The position numbers were made by a program, and so were the translations under genes. This document shows, in pieces, positions 61,549-63,020 of a stretch of DNA of 64,000 nt. Position 1 is the first letter of the stretch, and each line of letters starts with the position of its first letter. The DNA comes from Bacillus bingmayongensis (GTDB taxonomy: Bacteria; Bacillota; Bacilli; Bacillales; Bacillaceae_G), in NCBI RefSeq assembly GCF_000299035.1, contig NZ_JH921517.1, positions 485,317 to 549,316 on the forward strand. Reading direction: 5' to 3'. The notes beneath the pieces are model-generated. The model searched no databases. It saw only the letters and a list, made by a program, of their open reading frames with translations, and was not told where the DNA came from.

Positions 61549-61578
61549 TGACGGAAAAAGTATAACATATTAAAATAA
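61549..61578 (+). promoter_or_regulatory. Promoter of the sr1P cluster
   Basis: TTGACG and TAAAAT, separated by 17 bases, lie about 60-90 bases before the first sr1P start. In B. subtilis this promoter is controlled by CcpN and CcpA. Confidence 0.6.
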
Positions 61579-61638
61579 AGACAGAAGTTAAGCGGTTACA
61601 AAAGTTTTTGGGATTATAAACTTAGGGGGAAATAAAAA

Positions 61639-61767
61639 ATGGGAACAATCGTATGTCAAGATTGTGAGAGTACAATTGCACACTTCGAGGATGAGAAAGT
61701 AACAGTACTTTACGGGAAATGCGGATCTTGCGGATGTGATCACAAGGAGCATACAAAAGCCCAATAA
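61639..61767 (+). CDS. sr1P: SR1P-family GapA-binding peptide, copy 1
   Basis: A 42-residue peptide: MGTIVCQDCESTIAHFEDEK, then VTVLYGKCGSCGCDHKEHTK. This is the sequence pattern of SR1P, the peptide encoded by the small RNA SR1, which in B. subtilis binds glyceraldehyde-3-phosphate dehydrogenase GapA and helps it work with RNase J1. Cysteine pairs CxxC (residues 6-9) and CGSCGC (28-33) suggest metal binding. RBS TTAGGGGGAAA precedes the ATG. It is the most divergent of the three tandem copies. Confidence 0.88.
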   Translation: MGTIVCQDCESTIAHFEDEKVTVLYGKCGSCGCDHKEHTKAQ

Positions 61768-61827
61768 TATATAGGAATCTTGCAACTGAAAAAGTTTTTA
61801 GGACCATAAACTTAGGGGGAAATGAAA

Positions 61828-61956
61828 ATGGGAACGATCGTATGTCAAGTTTGTGAAGGAACAATTGCACACTTTGAAGATGAAAAGACAACAGTACTTT
61901 ACGGAAAATGTGGATCTCATTGCGAATGTGATCACAAGGAACATACAAAAGCTTAG
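61828..61956 (+). CDS. sr1P: SR1P-family peptide, copy 2
   Basis: A 42-residue peptide almost the same as copy 3 (MGTIVCQVCEGTIAHFEDEK, TTVLYGKCGSHCECDHKEHT), with the cysteine cluster changed from CGSCGC to CGSHCEC, one residue longer, and a TAG stop. Its leader repeats that of copy 1 (CATAAACTTAGGGGGAAATGA), showing a tandem duplication of about 190 bases including the translation signal. It has no promoter or terminator of its own. Confidence 0.88.
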   Translation: MGTIVCQVCEGTIAHFEDEKTTVLYGKCGSHCECDHKEHTKA

Positions 61957-62024
61957 TAATATATAGAACGTGTAAATGTAAAGGGTTTCAAATCACAATT
62001 CAAATTCAGGGGGAAATGAAGAAA

Positions 62025-62156
62025 ATGGGAACAATCGTATGTCAAGTTTGTGAAGGAACAATTGCACACTTTGAAGATGAAAAAACAACAGTACTTTACG
62101 GAAAATGTGAATCTCATTGCGAATGTGGTCACAAAGAGCATACAAAAGCCCAATAA
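62025..62156 (+). CDS. sr1P: SR1P-family peptide, copy 3
   Basis: A 43-residue peptide (MGTIVCQVCEGTIAHFEDEK, TTVLYGKCESHCECGHKEHT) that shares most of its DNA with copy 2, differing at two positions in the C-terminal cluster (GKCES, CECGH). Its leader has only the CAGGGGGAAATGA part in common with the others. A strong terminator follows. The near identity of copies 2 and 3 means that this duplication is more recent than the split from copy 1. Confidence 0.88.
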   Translation: MGTIVCQVCEGTIAHFEDEKTTVLYGKCESHCECGHKEHTKAQ

Positions 62157-62159
62157 TTA

Positions 62160-62192
62160 AAAGGCGCCTGCACATTTGCAGGCGCTTTTTTA
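62160..62192. terminator. sr1P cluster terminator
   Basis: AAGGCGCCTGCA and TGCAGGCGCTTTTTT stem; it also faces the convergent tgl gene. Confidence 0.92.
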
Positions 62193-63020
62193 ATAGATTG
62201 TAGTTGTGTGACCAACTGTTACAACAATTGCATCATCTCGAATTGGAATGAATTTGAGTGTTGTTTGTAGACTATTAGTAGAAGTATATTGGCTCATGAG
62301 GCGGCTATCTATGCGAGTAATAAAATCTGTTAAATATGCTGAGACAAAGGCATTGGGAATTCTTCGTTCATTTAATAAATAAATGATTTGTTCTTTTGTT
62401 TGTACTCCTACACCATGCCCATAAAAAAAGAAATTACCTAAATAAATCGCATTCTCTCCTTGCCATTCAATTGAAGTTGGATTCACTTGTGGATTTTTAA
62501 AGTAAACAAGATCGCCAGGAACGATATCCCCACCGGTTTTTGTTATCAGTTTTAAATCTCGGTCATAATCCCATGTATATAGTAGAAGATTCGCGAATAA
62601 GAAGTTAAAAGTTTTATCATCATATAGTGCTAAAAGTGCTTTGTAAAAAATAATAATCATTGCTGTTGCACATTCTGTTCCGTACTTTTTTCCATTTTTA
62701 AAAATATCTCGTATCGCGACGGAGGGTGGTACATTTGGGAGTAGTTGAAATCCTCCTAGTGGTGTCCTTTGCCAAAATTCAGGGTTACAATAGGATTGTT
62801 GGAATGTACGGAACTGAAGTCCACTTTGAAAGAGTTCTAAGGCAGATGTAATAATATGAATTCGCAAATTCAGATCAAAACTGAGTTCATCAGCTGTTCG
62901 GAATGAATATACTTCTTGATTTCCAGTCATAATGGCTAATATTTGTTGTTTCTCAGTAGCGAACGGTTCATTTTCACTCGTGATATAAGGATGTACAATA
63001 GAACGCCCAATCACAATCAT
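62190..63020 (-). CDS. tgl: Protein-glutamine gamma-glutamyltransferase Tgl (spore coat)
   Basis: Cross-links coat proteins of the spore through glutamyl-lysine bonds. The 276-residue protein follows B. subtilis Tgl (about 30 residues shorter): LRIHIITSALELFQSGLQFRTFQ, PPSVAIRDIFKNGKKYGTECATAMIIIFYKALL with the catalytic Cys, DLVYFKNPQVNPTSIEWQGENAIYLG, and YGHGVGVQTKEQII with the His. A ribosome site is weak. Neighbours speA and sr1P are in the order known from bacilli, although tgl is elsewhere in B. subtilis. Expression is expected late in sporulation in the mother cell. Confidence 0.9.
   Translation of the reverse strand: MIVIGRSIVHPYITSENEPFATEKQQILAIMTGNQEVYSFRTADELSFDLNLRIHIITSALELFQSGLQFRTFQQSYCNPEFWQRTPLGGFQLLPNVPPSVAIRDIFKNGKKYGTECATAMIIIFYKALLALYDDKTFNFLFANLLLYTWDYDRDLKLITKTGGDIVPGDLVYFKNPQVNPTSIEWQGENAIYLGNFFFYGHGVGVQTKEQIIYLLNERRIPNAFVSAYLTDFITRIDSRLMSQYTSTNSLQTTLKFIPIRDDAIVVTVGHTTTIY

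What the first reader, a model, noticed from the sequence alone, without database searches (positions are those of the whole stretch)
61549..62193. Tandem triplication of the SR1P peptide gene on one transcript
Three complete SR1P-like frames (42, 42 and 43 codons) lie in a row, each with its own ribosome site, under a single promoter (61549) and a single terminator (62160). B. subtilis has one copy on the dual-function RNA SR1. Copies 2 and 3 are nearly identical and copy 1 is older, and the differences cluster in the C-terminal cysteine/histidine part (CGSCGC against CGSHCEC and CESHCEC). This may mean dosage increase, or peptides with different partners besides GapA. Its partner RNase J1 and the glycolysis-to-pyruvate genes are in the same window. 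I cannot say whether multi-copy forms have been described before.
Basis: partly seen in the sequence, partly recalled or inferred. Interest (0 to 1): 0.8.

Follow-up and report, generated by a model that had tools for sequence, protein, structure and literature searches.

The report
Three-copy SR1P gene array, already known
The stretch carries three tandem genes for the small carbon-metabolism peptide SR1P behind what looks like one glucose-controlled switch; it is real, but tripled SR1P genes in this kind of Bacillus have been reported before.

Summary
Three intact SR1P genes (42, 42 and 43 codons, Pfam PF13790, E 4e-21 to 9e-18) lie head to tail, each with its own ribosome site. One promoter and one strong terminator bracket them; neither gap holds a terminator. 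The promoter carries two CcpN-type operators; 69 of 80 SR1P loci elsewhere have at least one such site upstream, against 16 of 2201 control stretches. The copies form one clade (bootstrap 96; copies 2+3, 99) and differ mainly by silent changes (dN/dS 0.09-0.22), so they look selected as proteins. Best reading: an ordinary SR1 dual-function RNA lengthened by duplicating its leader-plus-gene unit, giving more SR1P per transcript when glucose is scarce. It is not new: I recall the abstract of Gimpel et al. 2012 (not held) reporting duplicated or triplicated sr1p in the B. cereus group, and a B. anthracis study (passages) reports three SR1P RNAs reduced together with gapB and pckA. The cysteine/histidine-tail argument is weak, since that tail varies across the family. 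Possibly newer: a fused triple-SR1P frame, an independent duplication in Domibacillus, and SR1P paralogues beside pfkA and rpiB.

The parts
61451..61486 (+). terminator-like hairpin after the upstream SAV0927-like gene, which would insulate the array
   Evidence: -17.2 kcal/mol for 61440-61500, z -4.5, 0 of 200 shuffles as good; gene named
61528..61538 (+). CcpN-type operator 1 (TGTGTTATACT), upstream of the -35
   Evidence: consensus TRTGHYATAYW is recalled; conservation
61548..61576 (+). sigma-A-type promoter TTGACG-17-TAAAAT
   Evidence: aligned with four relatives
61559..61569 (-). CcpN-type operator 2 (inverted, TATGTTATACT), between -35 and -10
61586..61600 (+). cre-like (CcpA) site in the leader, AGTTAAGCGGTTACA, 2 mismatches; at chance level by itself, but aligned with similar sites in relatives
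61625..61629 (+). ribosome site of copy 1
   Evidence: by eye
61639..61767 (+). SR1P copy 1, 42 aa, family-like
61815..61819 (+). ribosome site of copy 2
   Evidence: by eye
61828..61956 (+). SR1P copy 2, 42 aa (44 from the in-frame ATG at 61822)
62009..62013 (+). ribosome site of copy 3
   Evidence: by eye
62025..62156 (+). SR1P copy 3, 43 aa (46 from the in-frame ATG at 62016)
62160..62193 (+). single intrinsic terminator; it also folds on the - strand (-18.9 kcal/mol), where it could serve the convergent transglutaminase gene 62190-63020
   Evidence: (listed there on the - strand only)

Best explanation
This is the sr1 locus of a Bacillus, probably of the B. cereus group, whose leader-plus-gene unit (about 190 nt) was duplicated twice between the original promoter/operator and the original terminator. 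One RNA of about 610 nt is made when glucose is scarce and CcpN (helped by CcpA) releases the promoter. Ribosomes start separately on each copy, so each transcript yields SR1P from three genes. The peptides bind GapA and strengthen its association with RNase J1, as in B. subtilis. Shown here: anatomy, conservation of the operator motif, common ancestry of the copies, excess of silent change. Inferred: a single transcript, CcpN/CcpA control, translation of all three copies, higher peptide dose, GapA binding, and the species group.
For: Pfam and Rfam hits. One operator pair, none in the gaps. Operator motif in the 200 nt upstream of 69 of 80 SR1P loci (40 of 80 with two or more), against 16 of 2201 control windows (0 with two) (many of the 80 are close kin, so they are not 80 independent cases). 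Clade of the three copies, bootstrap 96; copies 2+3, 99. dN/dS 0.10 (1-2), 0.22 (1-3), 0.09 (2-3), Fisher p 8e-5, 0.006, 0.005. In the four relatives compared, a terminator-like hairpin follows the SR1P stop within a few bases (read by eye), as it follows copy 3 here. PMC8938561: in B. anthracis treated with the compound '205, three SR1P RNAs are among the nine most reduced genes, with pckA and gapB (passage); shared CcpN control of these is recalled, and CcpN is not mentioned in that paper.
Against: No RNA or ribosome data were available. A 9-of-12 promoter-like match at 61739 could in principle drive copies 2 and 3. The motif count over the whole window, 5, is not above chance (18 of 100 shuffles reach it); only the close pair is telling. 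The full-length RNA folds no better than shuffles (z -0.3; 12 of 20 as good). Leader 2 resembles leader 1 (37 of 48) more than leader 3 (32 of 48), while gene 2 resembles gene 3 (119 of 126), so the history is mosaic rather than a clean two-step duplication. The window's own genome, and so its ahrC, ccpN and gapA, could not be examined.
Confidence: 0.88

Rival explanations
1. Subfunctionalised copies: copy 1 keeps the GapA role while copies 2 and 3 bind another partner or bind GapA with a different strength.
For: Copies 2 and 3 share V21T at a position that is V in 67 of 68 distinct homologues, and a one-residue longer spacing between the last cysteine pair. Some SR1P paralogues elsewhere sit beside pfkA and rpiB rather than in the sr1 locus.
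Against: The residues invariant over 71 sequences (M1 G2 T3 C6 C9 K20 Y25) are kept (positions 1-8 and 14-20 were also search patterns, which inflates conservation there), and so are the four conserved cysteines. The C-terminal tail varies across the whole family.
Confidence: 0.15
2. The extra copies serve the RNA function (more target-pairing sites) rather than the peptides.
For: SR1 is a dual-function RNA (PMC8152036), and Rfam RF02376 matches all three units.
Against: Changes between copies are mostly silent, which preserves peptide rather than RNA sequence, and the gaps (44 of 60 and 40 of 60 identical) diverge more than the genes (107 of 123 and 119 of 126). The RNA does not fold better than shuffles.
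Confidence: 0.07
3. Neutral tandem repeats on the way to loss.
For: Tandem duplications are common and unstable in general (established knowledge).
Against: dS between copies 1 and 2 is 0.59 with dN/dS 0.10, all three frames are open and all three ribosome sites are kept.
Confidence: 0.04

Closest known systems
SR1/SR1P (ykzW) of Bacillus subtilis
   Same: peptide family PF13790 and RNA family RF02376; B. subtilis also rings for PF13790 as a control. Its relative B. spizizenii (L054) has two operator sites upstream; CcpN and CcpA repression is published for B. subtilis (PMC8152036)
   Different: one 39-aa frame on a 205-nt RNA in B. subtilis (PMC8152036, section 14 read); three frames on a predicted RNA of about 610 nt here
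Duplicated or triplicated sr1p of the Bacillus cereus group (Gimpel et al. 2012, NAR 40:11659, doi 10.1093/nar/gks895)
   Same: tandem sr1p copies giving a longer SR1 (recalled from the abstract; the paper is not held)
   Different: nothing that I can name; this window appears to be a member
Three SR1P RNAs of B. anthracis (PMC8938561, passages seen)
   Same: three SR1P genes, reduced together with gapB and pckA
   Different: the passages count them as three RNAs and do not mention a shared promoter
Domibacillus two-copy SR1 locus (L122)
   Same: tandem SR1P pair with PdhD and SpeA beside it and a repeated leader
   Different: independent duplication: its two copies form their own clade, bootstrap 99

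Membership tests
SR1/SR1P dual-function RNA | SR1P peptide (PF13790) | tested here: met
   3 of 3 copies over the cut-off
SR1/SR1P dual-function RNA | SR1 RNA covariance model (RF02376) | tested here: met
   three hits over the gathering score
SR1/SR1P dual-function RNA | sigma-A promoter with CcpN-type operator sequence | tested here: met
   sequence level only:
SR1/SR1P dual-function RNA | actual repression by CcpN and CcpA in glucose | not testable with these tools
   needs expression data
SR1/SR1P dual-function RNA | intrinsic terminator right after the gene | tested here: met
   fold; relatives, by eye
SR1/SR1P dual-function RNA | conserved location by speA and pdhD | tested here: met
   a transglutaminase gene lies between the array and speA
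SR1/SR1P dual-function RNA | base pairing with ahrC mRNA | not testable with these tools
   own genome not held
SR1/SR1P dual-function RNA | binding to GapA and stimulation of RNase J1 | not testable with these tools
   needs biochemistry; published for B. subtilis (PMC8152036, section 14)
Multi-copy sr1p of the B. cereus group | two or three tandem sr1p copies on one RNA in a B. cereus-group genome | tested here: inconclusive
   three tandem copies shown; one RNA not measured; species not verified, and no title among the 80 loci names a B. cereus-group species (several are only Bacillus sp.)

The most novel reading that the evidence does not exclude
SR1P is one branch of a wider family of four-cysteine adaptor peptides for carbon-metabolism enzymes, repeatedly amplified (tandem, dispersed, fused). 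Within it, copies 2 and 3 here have drifted to a changed affinity or partner, marked by V21T and a longer cysteine spacing.
Probability: 0.2. Interest if true: 0.5.

Novelty: already known. Interest (0 to 1): 0.22.

Why it matters
It confirms, with operator-conservation and selection tests, that a regulatory small-protein gene can be multiplied inside what looks like one sRNA. The same happened independently in Domibacillus. The fused and pfkA/rpiB-linked SR1P relatives give testable cases for whether SR1P-like peptides serve enzymes other than GapA.

Tried and rejected
Disfavoured: own promoters or operators for copies 2/3 (no CcpN-type site in the gaps; only 9-of-12 promoter matches). Rejected: internal terminators. 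Rejected: the idea that RNase J or pdh proximity is special (conserved gene order for speA and pdhD; rnjA position in relatives was not tested). Rejected: a special Cys/His divergence.

Led nowhere: plasmid DNA search, no match; phage protein search, no match; plasmid protein search, one B. velezensis record annotated as GapA-binding peptide SR1P; NCBIfam, no model for 3 of 3 copies. Solved-structure and fold searches gave only weak hits: 5 of 6 sequence hits are Fur-type proteins (best E 0.12), and the fold search had none at E 0.001 or better (best 0.57, mostly Fur/PerR/Zur, some ribosomal proteins). This is a lead for a Zn(Cys)4 ribbon, not a result. A copy-number survey of the B. cereus group was not possible: the best DNA match over 397 genomes of the order was 75% identity over 180 bases. 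Paper searches found no held text, in the listings and passages I saw, that states the triplication.

Full report
What is there. Three intact SR1P frames lie in a row on the + strand at 61639-61767, 61828-61956 and 62025-62156. All three pass the Pfam SR1P cut-off, and the Rfam SR1 model matches each unit. The repeat finder gives three copies of 137 nt spaced 189 and 197 nt. Upstream the SAV0927-like gene is followed by its own hairpin; downstream one strong terminator follows copy 3; the gaps of 60 and 68 nt hold no structure better than shuffles.

Control. The promoter TTGACG-17-TAAAAT is overlapped by an inverted repeat whose arms contain matches to the CcpN consensus TRTGHYATAYW. I recalled that consensus and then tested it. 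Sites of this kind occur in the 200 nt before the gene in 69 of 80 relatives (two or more in 40 of 80), against 16 of 2201 control windows (none with two). The relatives are the best 80 of 83 confirmed loci; many come from the same genera, and at least two lie in an rpiB/GntR context rather than at the sr1 locus. Ectobacillus panaciterrae (L022) carries the same two 11-mers, 113 and 82 nt before the gene against 111 and 80 here. A cre-like site lies in the 90 nt before the gene in many relatives: best match with at most one mismatch in 64 of 80, against 228 of 4961 control windows. The window's own has two mismatches, which about a third of controls reach. Five CcpN-type matches occur in the whole window against 2.75 expected, not significant as a count; only those at 61528 and 61559 lie close together.

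History. A codon tree was built from 38 sequences: 31 chosen from the 80 loci, L083 and L084 (L083 is the same gene as L009), the Domibacillus pair and the three window copies. The window copies form one clade (96), with copies 2 and 3 together (99); Bacillus sp. 165 (L011) and Ectobacillus are nearest. Of these relatives' genomes, G004, G001 and G003 have one PF13790 match each, while G002 (E. funiculus) has six, none of them a three-gene array at this place. Pairwise dN/dS is 0.10, 0.22 and 0.09 with significant excess of silent change. Leaders and genes disagree on which copies are closest, so exchange between copies is likely.

Peptide. All 68 distinct homologues from the 80 loci keep four cysteines in a C-x2-C ... 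C-x(1-4)-C pattern. These loci were fetched with the patterns AHFEDEK and MGTIVCQ[VD], so conservation at positions 1-8 and 14-20 is inflated. AlphaFold on 71 sequences gives three strands, mean pLDDT 80.2, pTM 0.52, about 90 over the first 30 residues and low in the tail. Structure and sequence searches point weakly, and mostly, to Fur/PerR/Zur proteins. Copies 2 and 3 carry T at position 21, where 67 of 68 homologues have V; this is the one substitution at a near-invariant position.

Copy number elsewhere. Of 397 genomes sampled from the order, 325 have a PF13790 match and 23 have two or more (counted by eye; in one of the 23, G296, the second match is a fragment under the cut-off). Close same-strand pairs (gap under 500 nt) occur in 3 of those 23 (G005 twice, G389, G072), and only one pair (G005, Domibacillus) is at the speA-pdhD locus. 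None of the 397 has three separate tandem genes there. A fourth genome, G002, which came in through the loci and the search of 19 genomes of one family, has the fused triple. No genome close to the window was met in these samples, so this says nothing about how common the triplication is in its own group.

Known or new. PMC8152036 (section 14 read) describes one 39-aa SR1P on a 205-nt SR1, 23 homologues found in 2012, and the GapA-RNase J1 mechanism (PMC8501984, passage, gives 39 homologues for 2012). The 2012 paper itself is not held; I recall its abstract as saying that in the B. cereus group the sr1p region is present in duplicate or triplicate. PMC8938561 (passages) reports three SR1P-encoding RNAs in B. 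anthracis among the nine most reduced genes after treatment with compound '205, together with pckA and gapB. I therefore file the finding as already known, with an interest of 0.22.

Noticed in passing
L121:3083-3592 (-), Ectobacillus funiculus genome G002, contig end: One open frame of 170 aa holds three SR1P domains in tandem with no stop between them, each unit still preceded by a ribosome-site-like GGGGGAGA and an ATG; the frame begins at the contig end, so the array may be longer.
   Followed up: partly
L141, L143, L145, L148: SR1P-like genes lie between a phosphofructokinase gene and rpiB on the same strand (Pfam checked for PFK in L143 and L145 and for rpiB in L145, the rest by BLAST). 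A search for papers holding both SR1P and rpiB found none.
   Followed up: partly
L123, L124/L139, L154, L142, L149, L126: Other SR1P paralogues sit beside carbon-metabolism genes: rpiB with a GntR-type regulator (L123, L124, L154, by BLAST; Pfam for the L123 regulator), transketolase C-terminal plus DctP (L142), a 2-hydroxyacid dehydrogenase plus GntR/FCD (L149), a dehydrogenase E1 (L126). Against a general rule: an EamA transporter (L140), a carboxyltransferase (L147), and no such neighbour seen at L100 or L144.
   Followed up: partly
G005 (Domibacillus sp. PGB-M46; L122-L125): Seven PF13790 matches on four contigs (six over the cut-off), including two tandem pairs, one at the sr1 locus.
   Followed up: partly
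L100-L110: A divergent second SR1P (MQILICKECEETI...) at a distant locus in 11 genomes of the family search that also carry a copy by SpeA or the SAV0927-like gene.
   Followed up: no
window 61976-61990: The gap between copies 2 and 3 contains a one-mismatch cre-like match (ATGTAAAGGGTTTCA), though its central CG is not kept; about 5% of control windows do as well.
   Followed up: no
window 25258-25446 (-): Cobalamin riboswitch, E 2.8e-25.
   Followed up: no
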